Source: Amoebophrya sp. AT5.2 (lineage: Eukaryota > Sar > Dinophyceae > Syndiniales > Amoebophryaceae). From it: a stretch of 64,000 bases of DNA. Below the pieces are notes generated by a model. It was not told the origin of the DNA, did no database searches, and saw only the letters and a program-made list of their open reading frames with translations. This document shows positions 1 through 63,941 of this stretch, piece after piece (position 1 is the first letter of the stretch; the number at the start of each line of letters is the position of its first letter). The translations under genes were made by a program, and so were the position numbers. The DNA lies in the NCBI GenBank assembly GCA_005223375.1, contig RXOD01003797.1:20656-84655 (forward strand), read 5' to 3'.

Positions 1-848
1 TACTACACTGCCTGGAAGATGTCTCCACGCTTGCGGAAACCACACCGCACGCCCGGACTGCCGTCGTCGTGGTCACCAGGATACTTAAGTGCAGGCAAAC
101 GCCTGCTGTCTCTCGGTCTGTCCATTGTTCGTGGTATCCTCGATTGGATCTGTCATCAGGTCGGTCTTTCTCTCGGCGAATGTAGTGCACTTCGGATTTT
201 TTTTGGCGTGTGCATACTGGTACTGCAAGAACAAGATGTAGTAGATGATTTGAAGAGGATTGAAGAAGAAGCTAGCAAGCTAGTAAAATGTGGCTACCAG
301 TAGCGGTACCGAGCCTGAGGAGCGTGAGGGTGAGAGCGATGAGTTGGAGACGAATGAGGAACAAACGGATCTCTCTCGGTCTCGATCGAATCACGGCTTG
401 ATGTTGATGTGATCTTTTCTATTTATTTTGTCGTTGTGGGTCATCCGTGTAAGATGAGCTACGAACCGTCATCCAAGAAGTTCTTGGATCAATCGTGAAA
501 GTGTGCACACGAGGTGGACTTGTCACTCGAATGCCTTCTCGCAAGAAACATCACAAACAGGACCACTAGATGGCGATTTTCATCTATCCCACCCATTCAC
601 ATGTCGAAAACGTAAGTAGCCACTCGCATCGAAGTTTTTAGCGCTTCACCTCCCGCCTCGAAGAAACGTTATGCCCCCCCATGAAGTTTTCCCGGGAAAA
701 ATGTCGACGTATTGGCGGGGCAACATGCGTGTTCGACGTCGAAGGATGCCTACCTACGGCCCACTCCCTGAGTAGCGGAAGGAGCAGCAGGAGCAGCAGG
801 AGCATCATTTCGGAAGAGGAGACATCAGCTTGAACACGAACTGGGAAG
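1..848. other. 5' flanking region, no supported gene
   Basis: There is a 94-codon open frame at 19-303 (+) with no recognisable motif. It could be the tail of an upstream gene or chance, and I do not call it. The rest has stops in all frames. A short CAGGAG-type repetition (AGCAGGAGCAGGAGCA) lies just before 810. No RNA gene was seen. Confidence 0.5.
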
Positions 849-3800
849 ATGCAAAGTATGGAGGGCGTCGCATGTCACCAGCCGGTACAGAGTAAGCCGC
901 AGTCTGGTGTCGTTGTTGAAGCCAGCAGGTCGCGACGGAAGTTCGCACCGTGGCTCACCCCTTACGGCAGGCCTCTTCGACGGCGACCGGAAAGTGGGAA
1001 CGCATATTTCCAGCAGCCGCAGTCCTCCTCGGATGACAGACTTTTTCTTCGCGAGCTGTTTGACGCGATATCGAGTGGCGACGAGAAGGACAATCCATTC
1101 CGCATTCGCCTGGCTGCGTTCGATCTCTTCCATGGGCATGTAATTCAGGGACCGCTTAACGATGTCTTCTTTTCTTCTTCATCATCTTCATCATCTTCAT
1201 CATCTTCTGGGACTGGGATTTCGATTCTGTTTCACGCGAAGGAGTATCCAGTCGAGTACTCGTCCGGGTGTGTGCTGCTTCCTGTCGGCCACAAGGATGC
1301 GGGAGGCGACCAAGACCCCAGGCTTGGATCGGACCTATCCATCGGAGATTCGGACTTCTCGAAACGAAACTTTCTGTACTCACCCCAATTGGATGAGTCC
1401 CGGGTCTTCCTCATCGACGTGAAACACCCAGGCTTCGTAGGAGCAGGAGGTGCAGGCGGCCGCGTGCAAAAAGGAGACGACCACGCCGTCCGCGAAGAAG
1501 TGGAAGTGGGATGCGTCAAGAAACAGGCTGTGGATCTGCTTGCGGAAGGCGTAGCCGGTTCGCAGTTTTGCTCTGTTGACGAGCGCAAAGTAGGGCCGCA
1601 CCAGCTTGGAGTGGTGAACTTGGTTCTGACGAAGAAAAACAACCACGGCGCGAAGGATGGCGATGCTTCTGGAGCACCAACGTTCGTCGTTGAGAGTGTC
1701 GTCTTCGCGGCACAAACTTGCGAAGCGGCGTCGGGTCGCGCGTCTGGAGTAGCCACTGGAAAGCCGCTCACAGCATCACAACTCCAGCAACGGAGCAATG
1801 ATGATGAAACCGGCAAACGCGACCAGGCTACTACAGAGGGCGACATTGACAAGAAGGCAGTAGGAGTAGTAGTGCCAGGCCGTAGATTGGTTTCTGACGC
1901 CGATTTCGCTGAGTTCGTGGCGCAAACTGATGTCCGGCAGCGGTTGCCAACCCTCCAGGAACGAGCACTGAGACTGCAGATGACTGCTCTGTTGCCGCGC
2001 ATCTTCGCTTATGGAGATCACAACCGAAACGGGGACGAGCCATCGGTCGTGGCGCAGGTTCGCAAGCTGCAAGCCAGCACGGAAGCCGTTCTTGGCGGCG
2101 CATCGAGCCACGGAAAGACGTGCCTCGAGACCACAATCGCCAAGGACGCGCATTTTCCGAGGAATCTGTACCGCAGCGTGGACGTCGTGCGCTGCGTCTT
2201 CGTCGCGAGTTTGAAGCACGCGTGGCGGTGCGTGCTGCGGGAAGACGCTCAACATCAAGCTGAAGCTGGTTCCGCGCAGGCAATCGGTGATGTGAAGTCG
2301 CCAGCAACTGCGTCGACTGTTTTCAGTTTCGCAGGCGCTTCGAGCAGCTCCTCGTCGTCGGCTTCGTCGACCAGTGGCCGCGGTGAAAAGGGAAGCAGTG
2401 GCAGCCCTCGAGCCTCTCCGGTAGCGAGCTCTTCATCCACCGCGCGAGGGCCCCCTCCACCTTCGACGTTCCGTGATCTTCCGGGACCGGACGAAGAGGA
2501 CTTGAAAAGTTGGGTGTCTCAGTCCATGAACGGCTGTCGCATCGATCTCCTCCTCCGCATCTCCTCCGCACAATATCGGCGTCCGGGGGACGACGCAATC
2601 CGTTGCTGCTGCGGGGAAATCCGAATGGCGATCGCGCACCGCGCATTGGACTACAGCGACTGGCTGTGTAACGACGCGCGCCTTGGGCTGTTGGTGGCGG
2701 AAGCACTTTCAGCAGATGTGAATGTGGTTGAAAACGGCGCCGGTGGAGGGGGGCTGCGAAGTAGAGATTGGCTCGAGGCTTGTTTTGCGAAACTAGTCGA
2801 AGAAATTGGAGGGGGTGCGAGCGCGACCACTCCTGCAGCAGCGCTGTCTGTGCCGAATCCAACGTCACGAGACGGTGAACAGCATGTAGACACCAACATC
2901 CTGAAGAGGTGCTCGCTGATTGCGCGGTTTGCAGACGTCTTTGCGGACAAGGAGAGAGTCGAGCGGGTGCTGGCTGTCTTGGTTCATGATCTGGGGAAAG
3001 AACAGCAGGATTCCTTCTACCACCCTCTCTCCGCCGACACCAAAGCCCGGCTCAAAAGCATTGTTGACTCCGCACAGCGCGAGTTTGCATTGAAGAGTGA
3101 GCAGCGCTTCATGCGGCAAGTGCGCCGTAATCGCGCGAATTGCTGCGACCAGCATGCGCAAAGAAGCGCCATTATGTACGGAGAGGCCGAGGAAGGGGGT
3201 GGTCAAAACATTCCGTCGGTAAGCGAAAATGGAGTCGTGAATGCGTCCTCGCGCTCATCATCCAACACCACTGGTGTGCCGTGGCCAACCGGCGTCGCGC
3301 AACTTCAAACTATCCAAGAGGCACCGCGAAGAACTACACAGCATTCGTACGAGAAAGACGACGGTGCGTGGTGCATCCTCGTGGGTGGCGAGTTTGGCGG
3401 AACGATGCACTCGGACCGCCTTCGCACGCGGCCTGGGAAGTACCTCGGCGGCCACTGCAGTCTGCAGAACGTCGGTCGTGTTTACGAAAGCCTCCAGCCC
3501 TACTTCGGCAAGGACCGCATAATCGTGATCACGCAGCTGCAAGAGACCCTCGACTGGCTCGAACAGGTGACCTCGTCCATCGAGCAATGCAAGGCGTTGA
3601 CCGGAAAAGAAGGAATCGAGTTCTTCAACACGATGCAGCGACGTCGACGGGAAACGCTGAGGGACTGCGCGGCGTTGCTGGAAAACGGGGGCGCAGACTA
3701 TGACTTCGAGGACGTAAACGTGTGGACGTTGTTAAACGTGCTGCGGGGCGCGAACTCGGGGTTGTTGAGCAGAGCCAATAGCTCCTCGTCGGCTGAATGC

Positions 3801-5444
3801 GAGCGCGAGGATGCTGGAGCTGGGATTGGGAAGCAGGGGGACGACCGCGCATCTCCAGCATCACCAGAACGATCCGGGGCTCGAAATTACCAGCGCGAGC
3901 AAAAGAAGAAGAAGATCCTGCCGCCCAGGCCGAAGTCTGTGTTGGTGCTCATCAACACGCACGGAAACGCGCACCCAGCCGTGCAAGGCGACGAAGCATC
4001 TTGGGACGAGTGGTACTGCCATTTTCCCTACCCGACGCCGCCCCACGTGGACCACATTTACTCCGTCGCCGCGACGCAGGGCTACGTGGACGAAGAGGGT
4101 GGCTGCACCTCTGCGCGCGATTCAGACGCGGCCTCGCCGTTGTCGACGCCGCGGGGGGGAGCGGGGGGTGTGTCGGTCGTGTCGCCACGAGTCCTGGGCT
4201 CGGAGAGGGGCCTCACCGCTACGCCAGGTAGCAGCAAAGGGGGAGCTGTGGAATTCGTGCTGACAGGCGACACAGAGGATAGCTGCATGCTGGCAAAAAC
4301 TCCCGGGGGCTCGCCAACGGCCGGGCCGGATGAGCAAGAAAGTGCAGCTGCACCAGGAGGAGCTGCCGGCTTGACGACCCCAAACGCATTTTCGCCGCCG
4401 CTGCGTCGTTGCTCCACGGCGTCCAGTGGCTCCAACCTTTCTCTTTCGGCGAGTTGTACCTCGTCACAAGCAAAGAGGTCCGGAGTAAAGCAGAAGCACC
4501 AGAGCGCCGAAAACAGAGCCGTCGATTGGGGCGCTCCCAAGTACCGGTTCCGGTTGTACTCGCAGCAGCTTTTCCAAGCTTTCCACGACCTCACCGCGCG
4601 CTCGCCGACGACGCAGATCGTGACGCTGTACCAGTTTTGTCTTTCGGGCGGGTTCGCGAACTTTTTCACGCTGAAGAGCTACCAGAAGTATTTCGACACG
4701 CTCTCCTGGCCGGTCTTCGTGATGGTCACCTCCGGCCAGTACGAGCCGGCGCTCGGCACTTTCGCGTCGCTTTACGTGGACCAGCTCGTGCGGCACCTCG
4801 AGTTCCACAAACGGCACATGCTGCGGCCCTCGTCGGGCGCAGGGGGAACAACTACGCTGCGAGAGCTCTTTGAAGAAGTGAAGGCACAGTACGATGCGGA
4901 GCACGAGTTCGTGTCTACAACTTCTCGGGAAAGCGAGGAGGGGGCGGTAGACCTCGACAGAGCCGAGCAGGAGGTCGAGCAGGACGACCCTGTGCTCTCT
5001 CGCTTGCAGGCGGCGTCGTCGAAAGCGGAGCTGGCACTCACCAGGACGCGCTCGAAGCGCCGCCGCGAGGAAGCGGAAGTAGAGAGTGCACACGTGCTGG
5101 AGCACTGCGCGATCGACCAAGCGACGGGTGCGATCGCGGGTCCGCGCTCCAAGCTGGTGAAGAATCCGCTGTCCGTTGGAACCTTGAGCTGCCACGCAGG
5201 CATGAGCCTTCCCACGCTCTCCATGGATGATGTTCCCATCTCCTCACTGATAAACGTCTTCGAAAGCTTCTCCTCGTCAAGAGCACGCGACGAGCTGCAC
5301 GCTGGAGACGGTTCTGCAGCATCCTCCTCGGATGATATCTTCCTCGCATCTACTTCCCCTGCGTGCGAGCCTGAAACTGAAGCAACTTCTCCTGCGCTTC
5401 TCGGTGGCCAGGGCCACGAGGCAGGAAGCACGAGCAAACTATGA
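849..5444 (+). CDS. Large protein with divergent caspase/legumain-like (clan CD) peptidase domain
   Basis: This is a single open frame of 1,531 codons starting at ATG 849. No intron is needed. Low-complexity blocks occur throughout: a Ser run at about residues 109-120, Ser/Gly/Pro tracts near 500-540, and acidic or Ser-rich linkers. The middle and C-terminal part looks like a clan CD cysteine peptidase fold. A beta-strand start (WCILVGGEFGG, about residue 840) is followed by GKYLGGHCSLQNVGRVYESL. A hydrophobic strand ends in a His-Gly pair (VLVLINTHGNAH, His1038). A second strand ends in Cys (IVTLYQFCLSGGF, Cys1264), and then comes a strand of the form PVFVMVTSGQYEPALG. This order, strand-HG then strand-CxSGxF then an 'Axxxxxes'-like strand, matches legumain (C13) and caspase-like enzymes. 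The usual Asp/Glu-Ala before the Cys is replaced by Gln-Phe, and about 225 residues, mostly low complexity, separate His and Cys. Catalytic activity is therefore inferred, not shown. Residues upstream of 840 are unrecognised. It could instead be a pseudo-enzyme. Confidence 0.62.
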   Translation: MQSMEGVACHQPVQSKPQSGVVVEASRSRRKFAPWLTPYGRPLRRRPESGNAYFQQPQSSSDDRLFLRELFDAISSGDEKDNPFRIRLAAFDLFHGHVIQGPLNDVFFSSSSSSSSSSSSGTGISILFHAKEYPVEYSSGCVLLPVGHKDAGGDQDPRLGSDLSIGDSDFSKRNFLYSPQLDESRVFLIDVKHPGFVGAGGAGGRVQKGDDHAVREEVEVGCVKKQAVDLLAEGVAGSQFCSVDERKVGPHQLGVVNLVLTKKNNHGAKDGDASGAPTFVVESVVFAAQTCEAASGRASGVATGKPLTASQLQQRSNDDETGKRDQATTEGDIDKKAVGVVVPGRRLVSDADFAEFVAQTDVRQRLPTLQERALRLQMTALLPRIFAYGDHNRNGDEPSVVAQVRKLQASTEAVLGGASSHGKTCLETTIAKDAHFPRNLYRSVDVVRCVFVASLKHAWRCVLREDAQHQAEAGSAQAIGDVKSPATASTVFSFAGASSSSSSSASSTSGRGEKGSSGSPRASPVASSSSTARGPPPPSTFRDLPGPDEEDLKSWVSQSMNGCRIDLLLRISSAQYRRPGDDAIRCCCGEIRMAIAHRALDYSDWLCNDARLGLLVAEALSADVNVVENGAGGGGLRSRDWLEACFAKLVEEIGGGASATTPAAALSVPNPTSRDGEQHVDTNILKRCSLIARFADVFADKERVERVLAVLVHDLGKEQQDSFYHPLSADTKARLKSIVDSAQREFALKSEQRFMRQVRRNRANCCDQHAQRSAIMYGEAEEGGGQNIPSVSENGVVNASSRSSSNTTGVPWPTGVAQLQTIQEAPRRTTQHSYEKDDGAWCILVGGEFGGTMHSDRLRTRPGKYLGGHCSLQNVGRVYESLQPYFGKDRIIVITQLQETLDWLEQVTSSIEQCKALTGKEGIEFFNTMQRRRRETLRDCAALLENGGADYDFEDVNVWTLLNVLRGANSGLLSRANSSSSAECEREDAGAGIGKQGDDRASPASPERSGARNYQREQKKKKILPPRPKSVLVLINTHGNAHPAVQGDEASWDEWYCHFPYPTPPHVDHIYSVAATQGYVDEEGGCTSARDSDAASPLSTPRGGAGGVSVVSPRVLGSERGLTATPGSSKGGAVEFVLTGDTEDSCMLAKTPGGSPTAGPDEQESAAAPGGAAGLTTPNAFSPPLRRCSTASSGSNLSLSASCTSSQAKRSGVKQKHQSAENRAVDWGAPKYRFRLYSQQLFQAFHDLTARSPTTQIVTLYQFCLSGGFANFFTLKSYQKYFDTLSWPVFVMVTSGQYEPALGTFASLYVDQLVRHLEFHKRHMLRPSSGAGGTTTLRELFEEVKAQYDAEHEFVSTTSRESEEGAVDLDRAEQEVEQDDPVLSRLQAASSKAELALTRTRSKRRREEAEVESAHVLEHCAIDQATGAIAGPRSKLVKNPLSVGTLSCHAGMSLPTLSMDDVPISSLINVFESFSSSRARDELHAGDGSAASSSDDIFLASTSPACEPETEATSPALLGGQGHEAGSTSKL
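1177..1207. repeat. Ser-encoding minisatellite
   Basis: The 9-bp unit CTTCATCAT is repeated about 3.4 times inside the caspase-like gene. In the gene frame it encodes a run of serines; in other frames it would give His/Leu or Met/Lys runs. It is a likely site of length variation between isolates. Confidence 0.75.
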
Positions 5445-6578
5445 CTGAAAGTGCATAACCAGAAGGATCGGCTTCCTTCGATACTGAACCGCCCGAAAAA
5501 CCGAAATCACACGTCATCATAGCTGAACTTGTGCTGATTTTGCATCTGCAGCGTCCTTGTCAGCTGACCGTCGCTGATGAGAAAGATAGAAGACACTGAC
5601 ACGGAGTGAAAAGGTGTAAGCATCGAGCTTACTTAGCAGCTCTTCTCCGAGCGGATGCGGATAGCGTCACTTCTATCACAAGTGTGTTTGTAAGTTGCCA
5701 CTTCGTAGTTTCATCTGTGTTTCTTCATATTTATACACAGTGTCAGGAGGGGCCGCCCAGTTTCGGTAGCTCAGACACTCGCTCGTGAAGACGCGCTGCA
5801 CTGAAAGATCCTCTTCTTCTTGGCATCGACTCAGCGTGACTACTCAGATTGATGAATTACCAGCTCCTAAAGTAATGCGAAGAATCTACCGCGTTGACAG
5901 GAGATCTTATCTCACGGCATCGATCCATCCATCGTAACAACTGCTTGTTCATCTGCCGGAGTTCGTTGCCGATCATGGTCGATCATGGTCGCGATTTCTT
6001 GGTGGAGTTTGTGTCTGTCCACGACAGCGCGGGCACGCGACAATAAAAATATGTTTGAATTTCTTCCTGTTTCTCCTCAATATGCTCGTAAAACAAAACA
6101 GCGCAGGGAGCAGATCTGTATCTATACGCTTACGCATACGCAGCGCGCACCTACGTACTATGTAAGAAAGTACATGGCTACGGCTAGCATCTGCGAGTTG
6201 TGTTACTAGTGTGGCCTTTTGCTTTCCTCGCCCGCGGCAGGGAGGCTTCAATCTCCTTGCGTTTGATGCGAGAACCACGGCGGGCGCTCTTCGAAATGAT
6301 GTCCGTTTTGGGTGGTCACTGACAGTTCCAGTTGACGCCTACCTGAATTTCTTCAAAACCGTTTAAAAAGCACAGGACCTCACAAAGGTTATACTTATCT
6401 GCACCCAAGCCATGTCGAAGACTAAGTCTCCGACAACTATCGTCGTGGAACTTGTTGGAGCATTTTTGTGCATCCTGCATGTAGATTGCTCTACTACTCC
6501 CTGTTCCAGTTCACGTAGCCGCTTCGGCTTCCGCTGAACTTGCTGAAGTTGCAGGGCGACATGCGCTGATAGCAGAAG
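5445..6578. other. Intergenic region, no supported gene
   Basis: Frames are short and broken on both strands. A tandem GATCATGGTC doublet lies near 5,972-5,992. No RNA gene or recognisable promoter was seen. Confidence 0.5.
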
Positions 6579-9500
6579 ATGCGGGATCAACATCAGCACA
6601 TCAATTACCACCACGGTCCTCCTCCTCCTCGCGGTGGCCGCGGCGAGTACGGGGGAGAGCGAGAACGGGACCCGCACCATCCTCAACCTCCAGGAGCGCA
6701 ATCCAGGCGCGCAGGTGGACCAGGACCACCAGCACCAGACCGCGAAAACAGGTACAGGTACGATGTTGAAGATTACGACGTACGACCTGCACCTCCACCG
6801 CCAAATCGCGGAGTTCCTTCGGCTGGTAGGGGAGGAGGGCATCCACGGGACCGCCAGCACCCCCGCGATAATATAAATCGCCGCGAAGTAGAACCCGGAG
6901 ACGACTATTTTGACGAGCGCGACTACGACGATCATTTGTACCACGACGATCACGACCTTCGGCGGGATCATTTGCCGCCGGCGCACGACCGAGAGCCTCT
7001 ACCGTACTACGAGCGCGAGCGGGACTACGAACGCGAGCGGGACTACGAACGCGAGCAGCCTGCCCGAGGTCCGCTGATGTTGAGAGGAGGTGATGCAGCT
7101 CCTCCATCCCGCCGCGAGCAGCACGGGGGTTCGGCCGCTTCCAAGGCGCGCGTCGGCGGTGACCAGCAGCACCAGAACCCGCAAAAGCTAGGCGGGGGTG
7201 GATCGTCGAAGCGCGACGAACTGCGCGGTGGGCGTGTAGTAGAACCCGCAAAAGGAGCAGCTAGGCGTGGGCGCGGCGACCAGCAGCGCGATGGAGAGCC
7301 CCGGGGGGAGAACGGTGGATCGAAGTTTTGGCTGGTGACGCCGCTGCAGGTTGGATTCTCGCAGGGTCGCATCGCGCCGCAGTTCCAGGACGGCAGGGAG
7401 ATTGAGTATGACGGAACCAGGTCTAGGTGGTAAGTGAACAACTGGTATCAGTAGAAGCATTGTATGTCTATGAATGTTGTAAAAAAAAATGGCAATGGGC
7501 GGTGCACCACGTGAGGAGCAATTGCCTTCGGTGGCGAGTGCGTTAACAAGGCCCCGCTGTGGGTGGTAGGAGGAGGCGGGTTCCTCGCTCGCACGGCGTT
7601 GGGATATGAGCCCTTGGGAGGGAGAGGAAGGTCAAGGTTGGAAGGAAGCACTGAGCCCTGCTTCCGCTACAGCTACTGCTACGACCGCGGTGGGGATGAT
7701 CGTAGAAGAGAAACGCAGAGCAAAAAGGGGCGCGTAGCAGGCTGGTGATCTATTCTTGTCAGCTGTAGGCTGCAGAGGTGGCAGGTCTCCCGATTGCGGA
7801 TGGCTGCTTTTATTCTGCTCCTAGCTACTTCTTTTACGGCGAATCTCTGTCTTACTCTTCCCAGGACACAGCCAAAGCCAAAGGGGAGCCCGAAGATCCC
7901 CCCAACAAAAATTTTTTATACCACAACCACTTCCTACTTGTGTACTAGTACTTCTTACAACCTGGCCCCACCATATTGAGAAGGCGATGTCGCAGATACG
8001 GCTGGTGGCGAACAAAAATTACTACCTCCTGGAACACCCATTCCCTGTGATCGATATCGTGCGCTGGAGAGCAAAGCGACGGAAAGAAAAACCTGGTATT
8101 TATTATTGAAGCTAGTTCTTGTAGTTCGAGTTCGTTTGTGGTGTCTGTATGGGTATCTTTGCGCAAGACGAAATGGACGCGGTGAAGCACCATGATTTTT
8201 AGTTTCATCCGGATGCATGATCACCATCACGACTACGAAGTATGATAAGATCAACATTCAGATTCATACCACTACCAATCCTGGTAAATCTTCACATGAT
8301 CGAGATCGCAGTCGCATTCATATCTATATGATTCACCTTCACGGAACTGGAAGAAGATTTTACATTTACGATTTTGCTGATGTTCGATCGTTGGCTCACA
8401 GATAAAGCCTCTGCCGACAAGGACAAGGCGGACTCGACGGATGCGGCGACCAAGGACGCTGCCACGAGCAATGGAGTTTCCGGCGATGACTCGGGCGAAC
8501 AGCCCGTCCACTTTGAGTCCGTCTGGAAACGAAAAGAGCTCGAGGAGCAGCTCGGGGAGGAGCGTTGGTTTTCTTTCGACAACCGACGGCTGTACTGCTT
8601 GCAGCAGTTTTGCGTGGACCGCGTCGTAGAAATGCGGAAGCGGGTGCAGAACGCGACGAAGGAAGCGCGGCAGGCAACAGTCGCGTTGGAACAGGCCATG
8701 ACATCGTACAACGCCAAGGTGGTAGCAGCATCTTCAGCTGCGGAGAACGCTACTCCAGGAGAAGGAGCTGGTGCTAGTACTACTTCCGTACCGCTGGCGG
8801 TGCCGCCAGCCCCTCCTGCGCAGCACAGCTACATTATGTCGGGCAAGAAGGGGCCCGGCGGTGTGCCCGTGATGAAAGGAGGCACATCAGTACCTACATC
8901 CTCTTCCTCGCCGCCCGTGGGCGGCGGGAAAGGACGAGCTGGGGGGGTTTCTGCGGAGCAAGCCGATTCGGCCTCTACGAGCGCGTCTACTGTCGTGGAC
9001 CTCACGCTTCCCTTACCGTTACCCTCCGCGGTCTCCTCCGCGATCTCTTCCGCCGCCGCCAACCTGAAGCTGCTGGCGGAGGCGAGAAAGCAGGCGCACG
9101 AGGTGCTCCAGGCCGAGCTTGCTCTAATGAAACCGATCTACATCTTGTGCCGTGAGAAGCAGCGCATCTCGAAGGAAATCCGGAAATTTCGGACCGAAAA
9201 CGACGGCGACGCGGTCCGCATCGGGCACCACACGGACGCGTGTCGAGAAATCTGGGACTGGCGCGTGGGGCGCGTGTGCGAATACGAGCAGTGGGACCGC
9301 TTGTTGAGACCCACACCGGATCTGCCGCGTATTTTTTCTCAGACTCATCATGTTACCATTTTTAACCTGGTTTACCGATGCGATCATGATGCATTGTCGT
9401 CGTGTAGTGACTCATTGTTCTCATATTTTTGCTCACTCTTTCAGTTTCAACGACCTCGACCGTCACGTACACGTCGTACGTCACCACCGCCCTATGCTCA

Positions 9501-26485: not shown

Positions 26486-27698
26486 TCCGTCAGATGAATT
26501 GTGAAGTCTACGTAAACTGGAAAGATCCAATGTAGTTCGACCAAACGGTCCCAGCATCAGCAATCATTCTCGCAATTATTTTTACGCTATTTATACGAAT
26601 CATGAGCTTGAGTTCCCTTCCGCTTCAATGATCATACCGATGCACTTCTGGTGCAATGAATAGTCGAATGGTCCTTCTTTCCAGTGCTGAGTATAGGCTT
26701 TCCGTTTCCTTTGGTAATACAAAGTACTTATATCGCTCGGGTTCGACATTCATGAGAACGAAAACGCACACTGACATCATGGCCCGTCCATGGGCGAACA
26801 CGGGCTCGACCGCCACGCAGAGTATCGAAAGTCTTCGTGTGATTTTTTTTGAAGCAAGCAGAGCTTCGGACGACTGCAGGAGCAGGAGACCATGCATGCC
26901 CGCCTCGTCGTGGTATTTTAAATTTGTATAAAAATAAAACAGCAACACGGCTTGCATCTGGATCTGCATGACAATTACTAATACAGTAGTCGTCCTTGTC
27001 CTTCTCCTTGTCGCCGTGACGATGAATCACCGTCACGGTCACAGATGTTGAGCAGCAACAGAGTGTGCTCTAGGCGAGCAGTCGGAATGTCTGGTATCGA
27101 ACAAAGGATATCGATATTTTAATCGAAATCGTGATGAAGAGTGAATGGACCATCGTATGCGTACGAGCTGAGACGGAGAGTATCGTGTTGCTGTCTCTGC
27201 TTGAGACTGCATCAATGAAAGGTGATGATCGTTCCACCTGCTCTGATCCGCCAGTAGTATTACCTATGTTCGTCCTCTGTAGTTGTTATTACTTTAATTT
27301 ATTAAAAATAAAAACTTTTTTAAGTATAACACATCAGGCGCCGGAAATAAAAATAATTTTACAGGCGTAGTCGTGGTACTAGTGGTCGACCGGCTGCGCC
27401 TGCGGCGTTCCTCCCCTAGACGGGAGGTGCTCGTGGAGCAAGTGCAAGTTTATGGCAAGGCCGTAGTACTCCAACCGCTCCTTCGTCGGATACAGGATGG
27501 TCGTCCAGGGGCCCCTGCTGGAGATGCATACCTCCAGCCACTGCATCTTCTGGCGTAGCCACTAATGCGCACTAGCAGGAGGAACAACGCGGTGCGCGAG
27601 CCAGAACCAAACAAGCTCCGCGCTCTACTTAAAGACTCCGCGGCCGCACATTGCTGATTGCGCCTCAGGATGCAGACGCGGCACGTTTTCCGACCAAT
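26486..27698. other. Intergenic region, no supported gene
   Basis: Mostly AT-rich with short frames. The GC rises after about 27,370, where short frames (27373-27558) could be part of an upstream exon or leader of the giant gene, but no splice chain could be supported. Confidence 0.45.
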
Positions 27699-30600
27699 AT
27701 GGAGATAGAAACGGACGCGGGTATTATGTCGGCGCCTGGCCTAGGCTTGCGGCCTTTGAGGAGCGACGGCGCCGGCGAGGCCGACGCCGCGGCAGCAAAT
27801 TGTGGTGACGGTCTTGCGCATTCCGCCCGCCATGTGGTCTTGCTTTCGCAGCGAAGCGAGGCACAGGCACGCAATTCTGTCCACCCCGGCGACGGCACTA
27901 GTGCGCGGCTGCGTGGCGGAGAAGCAGGGCTCCTCCAGGAGCAGTACAACCCGGAGCTCCATGATGACGAGGACCTCCACGGCGACCTGCTCTTCCACTC
28001 GACGACTTCGCAGCCGCACCCGTGGTTACACCAGCGGGACGCTGACATCGATCTGCTCGTTTCGAACCTCGTGTTCACGGCCGGGTCGTCGTCTTCCCCC
28101 GGCCGTCGCCGGCTCCCGAGTCCCGAACACCGGCGGCAGCGGATGACGCGGCTCATCTCGGGCTTGCAGGAGAGCGCCAAGACGCCCGTGCCCCTGAACA
28201 AGAGGCGTGCGGAACTGGCATTCCAGAAACTGTCGGACAAGGACTTCCTTGTCGGGCGAGGGGCGGAAATGATGCAGCTGATGAGCAGCACCCGGCGGCG
28301 AGCGGCGGGGGCGGGGGGGGGAAAGATGATGTTCGCGCCGCTGGCTGCGAAGAGCCCGGAGCTGACGCAGCGGCAGCGAGACGCAGAGAACTACTTTGTG
28401 CAGAGAACGAGGCGAGCAGAAGAAGAGCGACGGCGGATGAACAGCCCGCCGCCGATGCACGTGGGCGGACTTCGGGGCGGATTAAGTCCGGGGCAAATGC
28501 AGCGGTCGCGGTCGCCATCGCCGGTGAATCTGGTGCTGACAATCTCTCCGGGCAGGAAAATATCAAAACTCTACACATCGACGCCCACAGCGAAGGCGAA
28601 GCCAACTTTCGGAGGAAAAGTAGAGGAGCAGAAAAAGCCGGTGTCAGTCTTTCTGCCAGGAGTGCCGCTCCGGCAAACGGGGGGGCGTGCTGCTGCTGCG
28701 TCGAGGTCGGCATCTCCGAAGGCGCGCGAGCGGCCAAAGTCGGCAGCACGAGCAGGCCGAATCCAGCCGAAGGCACAGCAGCTAAAACCAATCGCCGATG
28801 GCGTCGCGGAAGTCGACACAAAAGTAGGGCAAGCGAGCAAGAAATCGACGTCGAACGACAAGTCGGGATCTCCTAAACCTAAGGAAACGGCCACAGCAAA
28901 CAAGCCTGATGCCTTGCAGACCAAGAGCAAGTCTAAGTCATCCTCCAAAGCGGCCGCGCCCTCACCCGACAAGAAAAAGGCGTCGAAGAAGCGACCGAAA
29001 ACCGCCACGACTTCTGCTTCTGTTGACCCCAAGAGGTTCCTCTGCCCGCCGGCAGCCGCTCAGCAAATCGCGCCGCGGTCTGTTCGCTCGGTTTCCAGCC
29101 TTGAGCCGGATGCTAGCGTCGAAGTCCCAACTGACGTCCACGCTCCCGCGCCGGCAAAAACCGTCTTCAAAGAACCGACTGCGGCTGTCGTGCAGGAAGA
29201 GGAAAATGCGGATGAGACCAACCAGCAAGAGCTCGTGATGAATCCTGACTCGGACGCGGACCACGAACGCGAAGTGGCCGAGACTCTTGCTACTGCTGTC
29301 GCACAGAAACTCACCTCAAGCAGCGGCGGCGAGGACGTGGAGCGGTCGCGATCCGGGTCGAAAAGCAGCAGTGGTCGCGCGCATGCAGTTCGGCACATGA
29401 ACTCATTTCCGAACTTGCGGCAGGACGTGCCGGGTTTGGATTTGCGCTCGTCCAATCGGCTGCGGAAATCACAGACAACGGCGGTGCATAAGACTGTGGA
29501 AGCTGCTGGAAGGGACGTCGACGGGGCCGACATCATGGAAGAGGACGATGCAGGTATGCTGGGCAACTCGAACCAATATAATTTTCCGGACGCCGCCGTC
29601 AGGGTCAGCGCCGAAAGTACGTCTAGCCTCGGAGGAGAACAACACGATATCGACTCCGAAGACGCGGAGCTTCTCGAAGCGTTCAAGAAAAGCGACGAAA
29701 CCAACATTGAGGAGCAAGACCCGAAGTTCGCAGGGCCGCAAGCACGAGATGGTGTGTCTGGTGCTGTCGGTCTCGACGCACTCATTCGCGAAGCAGAGGC
29801 TGAAATGCAAGAAGAAGCGGAACAGGCTGGTGGTGCTGCAGACGAGTTCGCGTGCTCGCAAAGTGCAGCCGTTGTCGATCCTCTCCCCGGAGTTGAAGAC
29901 GACGTTGTTGCTCGTGCTGCTGTCCCGTTCCCGCCCGATGCCGAAGATAAAACGGACGCTGCGCCACCATCAGCGGCACCTCCAGGTATTCGGCTTCAGC
30001 CATCGTCCGTGCAAGAACCGGCCGACGCTGTTGAAGCATGCCAGGTGATGCCGAACGACGACCCACCCGCCGTAGTAGACGTAATAAAGGTAGAGGGAGA
30101 TGATGAGGTCGAAGTCGAAGAAGACGAGAACGATGAGAAACTTCATCTGCCACCTCAAGTCGATGAAGCAGGGCGAGAAACAGCTGGGACAATGACGATA
30201 GACGATGGCGACGACTCCCGCACCAAGGCGGGGGACCAGAGCGCAGACCAGGTGACCGCGCCGATCGATGCCGATGTCGACCCGGACCTCCTTGAAGTCG
30301 ACGCCGACACCCTCGAGAATGCAGAGGAAATGGAACAAGCACCGGCTCCACCACCCCCACCCGTCGTTAAGGACCTGAAGTATCGGCTATCCGCGCTGCG
30401 CAACTACGTTCAGGACGGGAAAGAGGAACTCAAAAAAGAAGCCTCTCAGCGCGACGCGACGAAGTCTGCGCTGCGAGATTTCTTTGCGCACCGGGGCGAA
30501 GAGTTCCTCGAAAAAGCCTCCGAGGAACAGCTCGCAGAGCTGGAACTGGAAATGCTGCGACACGAAGCAGAAACAGCCGAGGCCGAGCGGAAGAAGCAGG

Positions 30601-33600
30601 TGAAGCGATCCGCCGCGCAAAAAGTGAAGTCTCTGAAATCATACGTCAAGGCGGAAAAAGAGACGCTGAAGAAAGAAGCACAGGGGCGACAGCGGAAGAA
30701 GAGTCAGCTGGCCGGCTTTTTCGAGAACCGAAACGAAGAATTTTTAGGCGCTCAGAAAGACGAAGAGGACCAGGATGGCAGTTACCTGCTCGGAAGCACG
30801 CGCGATTCCGGTCGCGGCGGACTCCTTTTTCCCACTGCCGACGACTACGAAAAAGCAGCAACTGAAAAAGCCAGAAAAGACGCAGAGAAGGACGAAAAGG
30901 CGCGGCAGAAGCGGCAATCGATAGACCTGGACAAGCTGCACATGTCGCGACGAGAGCGGGGCATTACGCAACTGAAAGGGATGATCTCTGACATCCAGGA
31001 CGAATGCGACCAGCAAATCTACGACGAAAACAAGATAATCGCGGAGGAGGCAAAAGAATCGTCCTTATCACCCGGCGGTGGGCGTCGCACGAAGTCGCCG
31101 CAATCGCGGCGACCCGGCCTGTTGGAGCAGCAGCTTATGGCGCAAGCGGTTTCGGGCGGACTCGGTATGGAGAAGTCGGTACTGGAACAGCAGCTGCGAT
31201 TCTACCATGAAGCGACGGCGGCGGCGACCACAACGTGGAGCATGGACATGACTGCATCAACTTCGGACGGCGCGCCCAGTGGAGCTGCTGCACCGAAGCG
31301 GAAAACTCTTTTCGCGCTGAGCCCGAAAAAGAAGTCGGCCGCAATAAAACCAGCAGCATCATTCTGTCAAGCGCCGCCTGCCAGTGCCGGGAGTGCAGCT
31401 GCGGGTGTTGCCGCCGCCACCGCGGCCGTATGCGCCGGGTCTCAACAACAAACCAGTTCGACCGAACCACGCGCCCGACAGCGAGCCTCCGCGCAGGGAA
31501 TGCCTCTCATCGCACCGAAGAAGCCGCCAGCGCAAGCGGAACAGGAACTACGGCCGTACGGCTCCCCAAGATCGAGAATGCCGCCGTTGGCAAAGCAGCC
31601 TTCAGGCGCTCCTTTGATCAGGCGTGGACAACAAGCCGACGTCCCGTCGGTGGATGCAAGCGAAGCGTCGACGCGGCGCCCGCTGCGGATCCAGCCCAAG
31701 CCCCGGTCTCAAGCCGCTCCTCCTAGTTCTGACCCACCAGCGCAGCTGCCGGCCATGATCAAGGATTCATCGACGGAAAGGGAAAGGCAACGCGAACGGG
31801 GTGACGACCATTTGGACGAGGAGGACGAGGAAACGCGACGAAAGAATGCGCTCAGTCAGAAACTGCTTCATTGGAACTCCCTCATGGAGGACGCGCACGT
31901 TTACGGCGACGTCGAATACGCAGACGAGGAAAGCAACCCCGTGAAGAAAGAAGCCGAGAGCATCGTGCAAAACGGTTTGGTCGCGCAGATCATTAACGTC
32001 GTGCGCGAGGAAAAGAATCTGCGCAGCGCGAGGAGCTTGAGCGGGGAGCGTCGGGGGAAAAGCCGCTCGCGCTCGCCTGCCGGCGCATCAAAGCAGCACC
32101 GGCCGGACCCGTACGCGGGTGTCGCCGGGTACAACTTCTACGCGGTAGAGCTGCCATTGCAGGAGCAGAGGGAGCTTGAACACCCGAACGCAGAGATGAA
32201 CTTCCTCGACATTGAAGAGCAAATTCTCGGTGAACGCGACGACCTCAGCGGCGAAGAGCTGCTGGCCCTGAGGGAAAAAATCTTGCGGATCGAAGAGAGC
32301 ATGGCAGGCCGTCCTCCTGACCATGTGGTATCGCCGTCAAGAAGGAATGTGTTCGAGGACAGGCGGAATGAAAAAGTTCTTGCATTTTTGGAGGACGAGG
32401 ACGACCCCAGCGGCAGAGACCAGGGCAATCTCGAAGTTCTTTTTGCCTCACACTCGCAACGTGGCACCGGTGCACATTTCGGTTCACCGACACGCGGGGG
32501 CGGCGGCCGCCAACACTCCGATATCACGGCGGTCGAGCAGCTTTTCCTGGAGGACCGACCGACGAGCTTCCGCGGGTCCGCGCGTAGCTACGGCTCGCCA
32601 CGCGGCGGCTTGCCGAAGCGGCTGCCCCCGCTTGAAGATTCTCAGGAGCATTTTCTCGCAAATGAGAGCAGGCAGCATGGACTGGAAAGCGAAGGCATGA
32701 CGCTCGACGACGTCGATGATCCTGCGCAAGTAGACGCCGAGCAATTGGCTGTGGGAGCTCTCGATCGGTCCGTGTCTGCGTCACAGCAGCAAGCGAGGAG
32801 AGCAGGTCGGGCGAACACGATGGAAAGCGGACTCAGGAGCGCCGGCGCGCAAACGCAAGATGCGACCCGCTCGGCGCACAGGAGCCAGCAATTTCAAAGA
32901 CACAAGGCGATGTCTGCGTCGCACATCGACGCCGTCGGTATTGCCTCCTCACGAAGCGCGGCTGCTGCTGCAACCTTTGACACCGGCGAGATGAAACATC
33001 GAGACGCAGACCACGGTCCCCGACGGGCGATCACATTTCGCGATGAAATCCTGGACGAGCCGGTGGACGACAGCGACAAGAAGCGGCTCTACCAGCTGCA
33101 GATGGAATTTCAGGCCGTCTGCGATTTGCTCGAACACTACGAGGCTAAGTTTCAGCGGCAGCTCCATGATCGAACCAACAGTCCGACGAAGAGGAGCCCT
33201 CGTGGTAGTTCATCCCGAGCGGTAGAGAACAAGAGACCACCAGCTCGTCCGAATTTGCCGGCCTTCCTCGCGAAGATTCAGGATCTGAGGGGAACTAAGT
33301 TCATCCCTCTGCGCAGGCGGCTCCGGTCGCACGGGCTGACAAAGCGGTGCGTCCGCGAGCTGGCGAGCGGCATCGCGGAAGTGCAAGCGGAATTACGCCT
33401 CGTCGTCGACCGCAAACGATTTGAGGAACAGAAAGCAGCGGAAAGAGCAGAGTTCGTTGCGGCCATGGGCGGTGGTGAAGAGGAAGAGAAGGGTGACGAT
33501 GACACGACCTCTGACGCAGGGATTCCTCTTAGAAGCCAGATGGTCGTTCCTGGCCAGAACTCCGACGAAAACGTTGGTGGCTACCGCGTCTCGGCGAGAG

Positions 33601-61444: not shown

Positions 61445-63941
61445 ATGGCGGCTTCATCTTCGTCTTCGTCCGCTGCCACCACCCATCATTTGGCTCCTGT
61501 TCGTGGAGCCTCCAGACCAGTACCTTCGAGCCGAGAAGGCAGTCCTGCGAATGCGCCGAGGGGCACTGTAGATCTCGTGCCCAGCGAAAAGAGGAAGAAC
61601 AAGAGAAAGACGAAGAGGAAGAACAAGAAAAACGAAAAGTTGGCTGGCGCAAACGAGCCAGCGACGGAGCAGCACCAGCAGAAGCAGGAGCAGCAGCAGC
61701 AGGGGGCCATCAACATGAGTCCTACTTTTCCGGCGCGCGTGGAGGACGAGGCGGTGCGCGACCTGAAAAAGTGCATCGACAAGACGTTTAGCAGGGGACC
61801 CCACCAGCGCGCGGCGCGCAGCGGCAGCGAGCCGGATTTGCGTCGCGAGCGGCTGCGCACTGCCGGCGGCATAGCGCAGCCCGGAGGCTTTCGCCGCCAT
61901 TTCATTCTGGCCCGCGATCGAGCGCACGCGGTGGAACGGGACCACGACCACCAGCGCGCGCCGTCTTCCTACTTAGCATCGTCCTCCAGCACGGCGACCA
62001 TGAATAAAACTCACGAGCAGCACCGCGGCCGCGCACAATCGAGCAATGTGAGGCTGAAGGCGCGAGTAGAGCAACATCAGACTCAGACACCCACGACCTC
62101 CGTCCAACCGGAAAAGGAGCCGGGAGACAAGCGGAAGCGGAAGCGCTCTGCAAGTAAGAGCAAAACAGTGCTTCCTGCTAATCCAGGAGGGCCTGAGCCT
62201 GTTCTTGATATTGGCTTTGGCAAGAACAGCAGGAAAGAAAACGATGAGGCAGTTGAAATGCCAGCTGCAACGCCGGCGCAGGCGGGCGACAGTATGTCGT
62301 GCCAGCAGCGTGGCGATCTGCGACGCCGCGAAGACCATGAGATGCTGGCAAGTGTTGACGCGGGAGCAGGAGTAGGGATCGACCGCGCGCAGGCGCACCA
62401 CACAGCAGGACAAATAAGTTGTGAGCTTCCTCCCTTCAGCCCCGTTGGCAGTTCGTCTTTCCTGTATGGCGCCAGCAGCTGCACCACTTCTGAGTATCGA
62501 AATCTGCTAGGCTCTGCATCCGTCGAGACAGCCACGGCACCAGACCACGTGGCGTCGCTGCTTCCGAACAAGATGCGCTGTGGAGTGTTTTTCTCTAGGG
62601 TCGAGTCCGCGTCCGCGGCCGTACCCAACGTGATGGACTCGAAGGTGGATCCGGCTTTTGAGTCAGCGCCGGCGGACAATTTCGAGCCGCGGCGAGGAGA
62701 GAAGGTGGATCAGCTGCAGCAGGACTTCCTAGACTTACCAACAAGTGAGGCCGCTGACGACGTGAACGACACGCAAAACTACCGCTTGCTTCGTCTAGAA
62801 GAGTACCCTGCTTCGATTTCGATAGTACCGATGATCCAGCACCAGCAGCCGACGGGTCCCGGACTTTCAGCCTCGGATCCTGATTCGAGCGCGGACTCTT
62901 CGCCGGTGCTTGTTCTTGCGGATTGCGCCACAGTCGTTGGCGGAGTCGGGAGCGGGACGCAGCGACTATGAAGGGACCAGGTGGTAAGAAAGTAACCAAC
63001 TGCATGCGCGAGGCAATGGGCCCCCTTGGGTGGCGAGGGCGTCAAAGCGCTCCGAAAAGCGCCCCCGGGCGGGTAGTTCAGAGATCTCTCATTGTGGGGA
63101 GTAGACGAGGCAGGCGGCACGATGAGAGCTATGGGGGGGTGGGGGTAGCGGGAGCAGGTCAGTTACTAGAATGGTGATAGAGTAGGGCGAAAGAAGGCGC
63201 ATAGAGATAGAGTGGCGCAGCTCTGCTCCTGTCGGCGGTAGGGCGCAACGGGAACGGTGCCAGGCCTTCCAACCGCAGAAAGCCGCCTCTGCCCTTTTCT
63301 TTTTAGGACCACGCCAGAGCGAAACCCGAAGGAAGTGCGCCCAAAAAATTTCACTATACCACTTTCTTAAGTAGCCACTTTCTTACCACTTGGCCCCACC
63401 ATAGCGACCGCATCAGCACTTGCAGCCAGCTGCATCTGCTCGGGGAGGCTCTCCGTCTCCGGCGCGCAAACGCTGCACGACCCACGAGTTGACGCCGCAC
63501 GACCCACGAGTACAGAACGGTCAGCAGCTCCAAAAACCACAAGAAGCGACCGCCGTGCCACTGCCGTCGGAGAGCGAAACAGGTGGACGACATGAAAGAG
63601 AAGATCTTCCAGGAGATAGCAGTAAAAGAACAAATACATCAGAGCAACACCAAGACCTCGACCTCGACCTGCCGCGGAAGAAACTACTAAACCGCCAGCA
63701 CCCGCCAACCGCACCGCCCCCGCGCGTTCCCGCTCGCAAAGCGGACAGAAACCTGCGCGACGATGATCGACGAGCTAGTGGTAGAGCACGAGCTCCGGGT
63801 GCGGCCCCCGCCACAGCCGTCGTGACAAAGCACGCGAAGGCGAAGTCGAAGGACCCGAAGCCAAACTACAACTACGCCCGGATACCGCTCAAAAAACCGA
63901 AGTTACAGCTCAAAAAATGCATTCTTAGACGCATCTTTTAA
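61445..63941 (+). CDS. Basic low-complexity protein of unknown function, split by an introner
   Basis: The proposed exons are 61445-62966 and 63409-63941, giving 684 aa. The first exon begins MAASSSSSSAATTHH, then a Lys/Arg run (KRKNKRKTKRKNKKNEK, about residues 43-60) resembling a nuclear localisation signal. Gln-rich and Arg/His-rich stretches follow, and an acidic region with PTSEAADDVNDTQNYRLL. The second exon is Arg/Pro/Ser-rich and ends in KKPKLQLKKCILRRIF. No domain was recognised. Without splicing the frame stops at 62969, inside the left end of the TIR element. Removing the element plus one GCGAC copy continues the frame (GTQR|PHQHLQPAA) for another 177 codons. An alternative is a 508-aa protein ending at 62971 with the rest untranslated, but the long open continuation in the predicted frame argues for splicing. 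Confidence 0.55.
62967..63403 (+). mobile_element. Introner-like TIR element, copy 2 (437 bp)
   Basis: The ends are inverted repeats over about 27 bp with four mismatches. The left end starts TATGAAGGGACCAGG and the right end is the complement of TATGGTGGGGCCAAG; both then continue GTGGTAAGAAAGT. The flanking direct repeat GCGAC is exact at 62962-62966 and 63404-63408. A second CTTTCTTAAG copy just inside the right TIR suggests local duplication. Internal sequence aligns in order with copy 1 at 7,407 but is clearly diverged. There is no coding frame for a transposase. No register of the junction gives GT-AG; the closest has AG at the 3' end only (CG-AG). Confidence 0.82.

What the first reader, a model, noticed from the sequence alone, without database searches (positions are those of the whole stretch)
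7402..7980. Introner-like element splits a ParB-like domain and is removed exactly at its target-site duplication
A 569-bp element with TATG...CATA inverted termini is flanked by perfect TTGAG repeats. Deleting the element and one repeat fuses GREIE to KAMSQIR and rebuilds a domain that ends in DNRRLYCLQ downstream. The splice point coincides with the insertion duplication and offers no GT-AG choice. This points to DNA transposon-like elements acting as introns, with excision guided by the paired TIR rather than by canonical sites. Introner elements of this kind are, as I recall, reported in Amoebophrya; this exact family may not be described.
Basis: partly seen in the sequence, partly recalled or inferred. 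Interest (0 to 1): 0.92.

Follow-up and report, generated by a model that had tools for sequence, protein, structure and literature searches.

The report
Transposon-like introns removed exactly, either orientation
A short mobile-element-like DNA piece sits inside a gene of an Amoebophrya-like plankton parasite and belongs to a family of perhaps several hundred copies that are cut out of gene messages exactly at their duplicated insertion site, whichever way round they sit and without the usual intron signals; this kind of intron was reported in 2021, but this family makes its unknown removal mechanism easier to test.

Summary
Element 7407-7975 lies between perfect TTGAG copies; deleting it plus one copy restores a protein that aligns without a gap to the Amoebophrya A120 orthologue, better than any GT-AG or GC-AG junction. 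In this copy TIR plus TSD alone is not above chance, but the genome holds 993 matching arms (reversed-pattern control 2), very roughly 840 elements. Two non-overlapping samples (53 and 48 elements) share a 5-bp TSD. Exact excision puts the flanking reading frames in phase in 45/53 and 40/48 (chance 1/3). In an E2 ubiquitin-conjugating-enzyme gene a transcriptome-derived (MMETSP) protein shows the exact junction, whereas a gene model uses the arm's GTAAGT and loses 17 residues. All 53 elements of the first sample are one family; relative to their genes 26 lie like the window copy and 27 the other way. Junctions carry no splice motif. So excision ignores orientation and flanking dinucleotides and is probably keyed to the transposon ends; the machinery is unknown. 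Arm complementarity is not maintained copy by copy, so pairing-guided excision is unproven. The kind is published (Farhat 2021, strains A25/A120); I did not find this family, or orientation-blindness, in the texts I searched.

The parts
7402..7406 (.). left copy of the 5-bp target-site duplication (TTGAG)
   Evidence: the 5-bp register is the only one of 3-7 bp with perfect repeats among 52 arm pairs found without using the repeat: 24 perfect, 12 with 4/5, 8 with 3/5, 8 with fewer
7407..7975 (+). introner element, 569 bp, member of the TATGAAGGGACCAGGTGGTAAGTG-arm family
7407..7448 (+). left terminal arm (left-arm type, TATGAC in this copy), carrying GTAAGT at 7430-7435
7430..7435 (+). GTAAGT inside the arm: decoy donor; the corresponding site in the L085 copy is used only by a gene model, not by the transcript-derived protein
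   Evidence: no gene-side bias of GTAAGT in the second sample (21/39 vs 20/39)
7786..7807 (+). internal conserved core of the family (diverged in this copy)
   Evidence: core pattern has 140 matches in the genome, reversed-pattern control 0; consensus
7935..7975 (-). right terminal arm (right-arm type TATGGY, read on the minus strand)
7976..7980 (.). right copy of the target-site duplication (TTGAG)
6573..7406 (+). upstream coding exon (open from 6573; true start not determined), ends ...FQDGREIE
7981..8095 (+). downstream exon KAMSQIRLVANKNYYLLEHPFPVIDIVRWRAKRRKEKP
   Evidence: A120 orthologue P0002 aligns without a gap across the junction
8096..8401 (+). ordinary GT-AG intron of the same gene, 306 nt
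   Evidence: phase and A120 alignment
8402..9310 (+). third coding exon with WFSFDNRRLYCLQ (right limit approximate)
62962..63408 (+). second family member in the window: element 62967-63403 with TSD GCGAC on both sides, inside a + strand ORF from 61307; exact excision keeps that frame open for roughly 200 codons
   Evidence: the automatic strand call for this copy (as L039) was minus, so its host strand rests on the ORF only

Best explanation
The element is a non-autonomous TIR DNA transposon (MITE-like) that acts as an intron. Insertion duplicates 5 bp of coding sequence. The transcript is then processed by removing exactly the element plus one 5-bp copy, which restores the reading frame. 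The removal does not read GT-AG or any other dinucleotide at the junction and does not depend on the element's orientation in the gene; it is most likely keyed to the transposon ends, which are inverted copies of one another and can pair in RNA. Shown: family, fixed 5-bp duplication, frame restoration, gap-free fit to relatives in five genes, a transcript-derived protein with the exact junction in one gene, both orientations. Inferred: that removal is at RNA level, that the ends are the signal, and that a symmetric end-recognising activity (a modified spliceosome or a separate endonuclease-ligase route) does it.
For: Window copy: gap-free A120 orthologue across the junction and junction enumeration. 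Family: 993 arms vs 2 control. TSD: 24 perfect and 12 at 4/5 of 52 TSD-blind pairs. Frames: 45/53 in phase, 37/40 where both flanks score as coding with a clear frame (binomial P 7e-15); second, non-overlapping sample 40/48, 39/44 with coding flanks (P 4e-14). Conserved genes: methionine synthase, ornithine aminotransferase, E2, cGMP-dependent kinase align without a gap at the junction to solved structures. RNA-derived: P0008, 100% identical over 97% of the exact-excision product of L085; against P0008 exact excision scores 458 and the best GT-AG/GC-AG junction 437. Orientation: 26 vs 27 in sample 1; 729/729 pairwise links consistent; in-phase elements 23:22 and 26:14. No motif: 82 in-phase elements with coding flanks, largest bias 0.17 bit; GT-AG register possible in 1 of 38 perfect-TSD elements.
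Against: 16 of 101 elements are not in phase (8/53; 8/48); most but not all have weak coding flanks or poor TSDs (L061 and L076 have strong flanks; their ends may be misassigned). Twelve of 60 loci of sample 2 could not be resolved, and there the element ends were chosen partly by TSD match. Arms do not co-vary within elements, 4 of 85 in-phase elements show no pairing between their 42-nt ends in the MFE fold, and the window copy has no excess structure. In methionine synthase a GC-AG register gives the same product. RNA evidence is one protein entry labelled MMETSP; its nucleotide sequence was not seen. U1 and U2 were both missed by the Rfam search while U6 was found, so the spliceosome question is untested.
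Confidence: 0.72

Rival explanations
1. Ordinary GT-AG introner: the major spliceosome uses GTAAGT in the arm or a TSD-supplied GT, with an AG nearby, leaving a few extra or missing codons.
For: Each arm carries GTAAGT-like motifs, and a public gene model of the E2 gene uses exactly that donor (P0022; path reproduced). The same gene in the window has an ordinary GT-AG intron. GTAAGT looked more frequent at the gene-5' arm in sample 1 (30/38 vs 17/32).
Against: The transcript-derived protein P0008 contradicts the model. Best GT-AG/GC-AG junctions score worse for the window gene (201 vs 233), ornithine aminotransferase (296 vs 313) and E2 (394 vs 408). The GTAAGT bias vanished in sample 2 (21/39 vs 20/39). 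GT-AG registers exist in 0 of 23 and 1 of 38 (a partly overlapping set) perfect-TSD elements.
Confidence: 0.06
2. A relaxed spliceosome with unusual but polar sites (for example GA-AG, GC-AG or AG at the 3' side) removes the elements; the fit to the TSD is where such sites happen to fall.
For: GA-AG fits the window copy as well as the TSD cut; GC-AG fits methionine synthase. Farhat 2021 found nearly all spliceosomal proteins in A25/A120 but no U1 (passages).
Against: No dinucleotide recurs at the junction of 82 in-phase elements; an AG-ending register exists in only 18 of 38 perfect-TSD elements. Both orientations work, so polar signals would have to come from the inverted arms themselves.
Confidence: 0.17
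3. Programmed DNA elimination, like ciliate IESs: a domesticated transposase excises the elements from the DNA of an expressing stage.
For: Precise, orientation-blind excision leaving one TSD copy is what such systems do (recalled, no call); Amoebophrya is an alveolate, like ciliates.
Against: The assembled DNA contains the elements, and the joined (empty) site of the window copy is not found elsewhere in the assembly: only its two halves at the same locus matched (an assembly can hide minority molecules). Ordinary GT-AG introns occur in the same gene.
Confidence: 0.05

Closest known systems
Introner elements / non-canonical introns of Amoebophrya A25 and A120 (Farhat et al. 2021, PMC7789003; abstract, sections 11, 12, 16 and passages seen)
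   Same: Repeated introns with inverted repeats at the ends and short direct repeats at exon borders, no common GT-AG borders, absence of internal transposase; IRs of A120 also begin with TAT.
   Different: Reported IRs are 8-20 nt and DRs 3-5 nt, variable in length and position, with 252 and 1954 strain-specific families. Here one family has arms of about 40 nt with repeated GGTAAGT motifs, a 5-bp TSD and both orientations. The published A120 IR ends in AAA, the A25 IR starts TTA; these arms do neither.
Introners with GT-AG sites co-opted from the TSD (Gozashti et al. 2022, PMC9860276; passages seen)
   Same: Non-autonomous DNA-transposon-like elements with TSD and TIR that create introns; usually no change in mRNA length.
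   Different: Those families carry or co-opt canonical or GC/GA splice sites; here no such site recurs at the junction.
Nonconventional introns of euglenids (Milanowski et al. 2016, PMC4770533; passages seen)
   Same: Non-canonical borders, direct repeats, ends brought together by RNA pairing, MITE origin proposed, removal mechanism unknown.
   Different: There CAG/CTG pairs lie at +4..+6/-8..-6 and complementarity of the ends is maintained; here the ends start TATG/CATA and the arms do not co-vary.
Ciliate internal eliminated sequences (recalled only)
   Same: Transposon-derived, exact excision leaving one target-site copy, orientation-blind.
   Different: Removed from DNA; here the evidence points to RNA.

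Membership tests
Amoebophrya introner elements (Farhat 2021) | Inverted repeats at the two ends of a repeated intron | tested here: met
   993 arms, 52 arm pairs, consensus ends
Amoebophrya introner elements (Farhat 2021) | Direct repeats of 3-5 nt at the exon/intron borders | tested here: met
   5-bp repeats: 24 of 52 perfect, 36 of 52 at least 4/5
Amoebophrya introner elements (Farhat 2021) | Splice sites that are not GT-AG, supported by RNA | tested here: met
   For the L085 copy, by a transcript-derived protein; for the window copy only by homology
Amoebophrya introner elements (Farhat 2021) | Arm sequence of a described family (A25 TTA-RR...G, A120 TAT...AAA) | tested here: not met
   Consensus arm TATGAAGGGACCAGGTGGTAAGTG against the motifs described in the main text; the supplementary family lists were not read. 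A strain-specific arm is what that paper leads one to expect of a new strain.
Amoebophrya introner elements (Farhat 2021) | Host is an Amoebophrya | tested here: inconclusive
   Nearest named proteins are Amoebophrya A120 and A25 (55% and 82-83% identity); species not identified, rRNA search did not complete
Canonical (GT-AG) introners | GT/GC-AG borders carried or co-opted from the TSD | tested here: not met
   exception: a GC-AG register gives the same product in methionine synthase
MITE (non-autonomous TIR DNA transposon) | TIRs, fixed-length TSD, many homologous copies, no transposase gene | tested here: met
   longest open stretch in any of 53 elements 159 aa, median 97; these stretches were not searched for a transposase
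MITE (non-autonomous TIR DNA transposon) | Mobilised by an identified transposase | not tested
   No transposase family was searched
Euglenid nonconventional introns | CAG/CTG pairing at +4..+6/-8..-6 and complementarity of the ends maintained by compensating change | tested here: not met
   Arm consensus; within-element complementarity not above between-element
Ciliate-type internal eliminated sequences | Absent from the DNA of the expressing nucleus | tested here: inconclusive
   Elements present in the assembly; no empty site for the window copy; no stage-specific DNA available

The most novel reading that the evidence does not exclude
An intron system without splice sites: one transposon family whose two inverted ends are recognised in RNA by an orientation-blind cut-and-join activity, separate from GT-AG splicing and possibly derived from transposon end recognition, so that any 5-bp coding target becomes an exact exon junction.
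Probability: 0.3. Interest if true: 0.9.

Novelty: new member of a known kind. Interest (0 to 1): 0.62.

Why it matters
How Amoebophrya removes introns that lack splice sites is an open question. One family with perhaps several hundred copies in both orientations, diverged arms and a known exact product is a natural mutagenesis series: it shows that orientation and flanking dinucleotides do not matter, and it lets the role of each arm be tested. It also shows that gene models forced to GT-AG can hide such introns. The published statement that strain AT5 has 99.98% GT-AG introns rests, in Farhat's words, on prediction; if the present genome is AT5 or a close relative (my guess from G+C 56% here against 55.9% and from g-number gene models; not shown), that statement would need checking against RNA.

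Tried and rejected
TIR+TSD as proof by itself: rejected, chance gives as much in the window; an earlier general scan with a 14-nt arm and at least 11 matches missed the element and found 16 pairs against 7-12 in three shuffles.

GTAAGT in the arm as a displaced donor (U1-like recognition at a distance): suggested by sample 1 (30/38 vs 17/32 arms), not replicated in sample 2 (21/39 vs 20/39).

U1 loss: no U1 found, but U2 was missed as well while U6 was found; dropped as uninformative.

Arm-arm coevolution: none. Rfam on 8 loci: two sub-gathering hits, both outside the elements. Long autonomous copies were not sought systematically.

Register of the cut: one informative copy. In the kinase gene of L042 the right TSD base gives the conserved glycine-loop Gly and the left one Asp, so the last base of the left copy is probably removed. 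A second attempt (HMG-box-like gene of L008) found only a 73-aa entry that reads through into the element, which says nothing on the register.

By eye I had first taken L003 as one base out of phase; checked by script, removal with 5 bp is in frame. It is in neither sample, nor is L002, which is also in frame.

Full report
What is there. The window holds a 569-bp element at 7407-7975 with TATG...CATA ends and TTGAG on both sides. Its ends match over 12 of the first 16 bases. This is not remarkable by chance: pairs with a 5-bp repeat, four matching end bases and 12/16 numbered 2 in the window and 0-3 in each of 8 shuffles. The case rests on what follows.

Coding evidence for this copy. Removing the element and one TTGAG, plus a canonical GT-AG intron at 8096-8401, gives a protein whose best named relative is an Amoebophrya sp. 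A120 protein (P0002, 55% identity over 97% of the searched region). It aligns without a gap across the junction: FQDGREIE/KAMSQIR against FQDGRDIEMAIADIR. P0003-P0007, five more distant relatives, share the FSQ-RI and FQD blocks before the junction but vary after it. Enumerating junctions, the 14 best listed all remove 574 nt; the best GT-AG or GC-AG choice scores 201 against 233-237. A GA-AG cut three bases to the right ties with the TSD cut, so homology fixes the length but not the exact register.

The family. A similarity search of the 50.7-Mb assembly found 9 places including the window's own, most of them internal pieces; a second search with a better-preserved copy gave 41 matches. The arm pattern TATGNNGGGNCCAGNTGGTAAG with up to 2 mismatches occurs 993 times (507 and 486 on the two strands) against 2 for the reversed pattern. 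Of 34 arms in 17 elements found by similarity, 20 fit the pattern, so about 840 elements is a rough guess; those 17 had been chosen with good arms, so the guess may be low. Fifty-two arm pairs were assembled without looking at the flanks: in the 5-bp register 24 repeats are perfect, 12 have 4/5, 8 have 3/5 and 8 have fewer; registers of 3, 4, 6 and 7 bp have no perfect case. With the window copy these 53 elements form one family; all 729 pairwise links agree on orientation. Median length is 460 (293-594), and length plus 5 is spread over all three residues modulo 3 (19, 19, 15), so the elements are not frame-neutral insertions.

Exact excision as a family property. For each element the coding frame of each flank was scored on its own with codon usage from window ORFs. 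Under exact excision the frames agree in 45 of 53; 37 of 40 where both flanks score as coding with a clear frame (P 7e-15); and 21 of 21 with perfect TSD and coding flanks. A second sample was found by an internal core pattern (140 genome matches, control 0). Of 60 loci fetched, 48 were resolved; 40 are in phase, 39 of 44 with coding flanks (P 4e-14). The samples share no element. In the second sample the ends were chosen partly by TSD match, so its TSD figures are not independent evidence. Exceptions: 8 of 53 and 8 of 48, several with weak coding flanks; L061 and L076 are not explained by that.

Conserved genes. Exact-excision products align without a gap at the junction to solved structures of methionine synthase (271 bits), ornithine aminotransferase (128 bits), a UBE2G-like E2 (133 bits) and cGMP-dependent kinase (57 bits). 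Local enumeration against relatives: ornithine aminotransferase exact 313 (a cut shifted by 3 gives 316), best GT-AG/GC-AG 296; E2 exact 408 (cuts shifted by 6-8 give 411), best GT-AG/GC-AG 394; methionine synthase exact 324, where a GC-AG register gives the same product (the E2 part was empty through a script filter and was redone).

RNA-derived evidence. The E2 product is 100% identical over 97% of its length to P0008, an entry labelled MMETSP transcript. Against P0008 exact excision scores 458 and the best GT-AG/GC-AG junction 437. P0022, a gene-model entry (g981.t1) that shares the rest of the sequence, reads MAGPG in place of 17 residues. Splicing from the arm's GTAAGT, 17 bases into the element, to the next exon AG reproduces it letter for letter. 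So a model limited to GT-AG misreads these introns. That MMETSP entries are transcriptomes is stated in a passage of PMC10624901; the nucleotide sequence of P0008 was not seen.

Orientation and signals. Relative to their genes 26 elements lie as in the window and 27 the other way; among in-phase elements 23:22 in sample 1 and 26:14 in sample 2. Ends are polar (one arm mostly TATGAA or TATGAC, the other TATGGC or TATGGT), yet both orders work. In 82 in-phase elements with coding flanks the flanks and TSD show at most 0.17 bit of bias, at TSD position 2 (more A/T; one exon position also passed the threshold), and of 38 with perfect TSD one allows GT-AG, one GC-AG and 18 any AG end. RNA folding pairs the 42-nt ends by at least 10 bp in 80 of 85 in-phase elements against 41 of 85 with a shuffled 3' end. 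But arms of one element are no more alike than arms of different ones (15.0 vs 15.4 of 22), and the window copy shows no excess structure (z 0.25; the methionine-synthase copy has z -5.4). The simplest reading is that the ends are recognised as such, in either orientation; whether through pairing is open.

Register. In L042 the left TSD ends in A and the right in G; only the right one gives the conserved glycine of the kinase loop (that this glycine is conserved in kinases is also general knowledge). The last base of the left copy is therefore probably removed. One case is not a rule.

What is known. Farhat et al. 2021 (PMC7789003) describe the same kind in strains A25 and A120: over 60% of introns non-canonical, inverted repeats of 8-20 nt, direct repeats of 3-5 nt, U1 not detected, mechanism unknown. 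In the passages I searched, orientation relative to genes is discussed only for genes, not for introners; supplements were not read. Gozashti et al. 2022 describe introners with GT/GC/GA sites (passages). A 2025 paper says the odd introns are confined to a subset of Amoebophrya, with AT5 canonical (passages); Farhat's text calls the AT5 figure predicted. Euglenid nonconventional introns are the closest analogue outside dinoflagellates (passages). The genome here is not named; the nearest named proteins are from A120 and A25.

Verdict. Real, and of a published kind; new family, with orientation-blind exact excision shown across one family in two samples. The mechanism is narrowed, not solved.

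Noticed in passing
window 62962-63408: A second member of the same family with perfect TSD GCGAC inside a long + strand ORF; exact excision keeps the frame open.
   Followed up: partly
window 8402 onward: The public model P0001 (g1484.t1) starts just before exon 3 and runs into a 2OG-Fe(II) oxygenase (PF14226, PF03171); the A120 orthologue P0002 ends without one. Merged models or a real fusion.
   Followed up: no
G000 contigs C273, C1050, C1418: Contigs begin within about 50 bases of the conserved internal core of the family; the assembly appears to break there.
   Followed up: no
element arms, family-wide: Each arm carries two GGTAAGT-like motifs; their reverse complement resembles the 5' end of U1 snRNA (recalled). 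No bias towards the gene-5' side in the second sample.
   Followed up: partly
L042: Two family members sit in one 3-kb stretch that encodes cyclic-nucleotide-binding and kinase parts of a cGMP-dependent-kinase-like protein.
   Followed up: partly
window 27633-38792 and 834-5444: Stop-free stretches of 3719 and 1536 codons; the second had no Pfam match, the first was not scanned.
   Followed up: no
G000:C954 and G000:C1707: Two U6 snRNA genes found; U1 and U2 not found by the same search.
   Followed up: no
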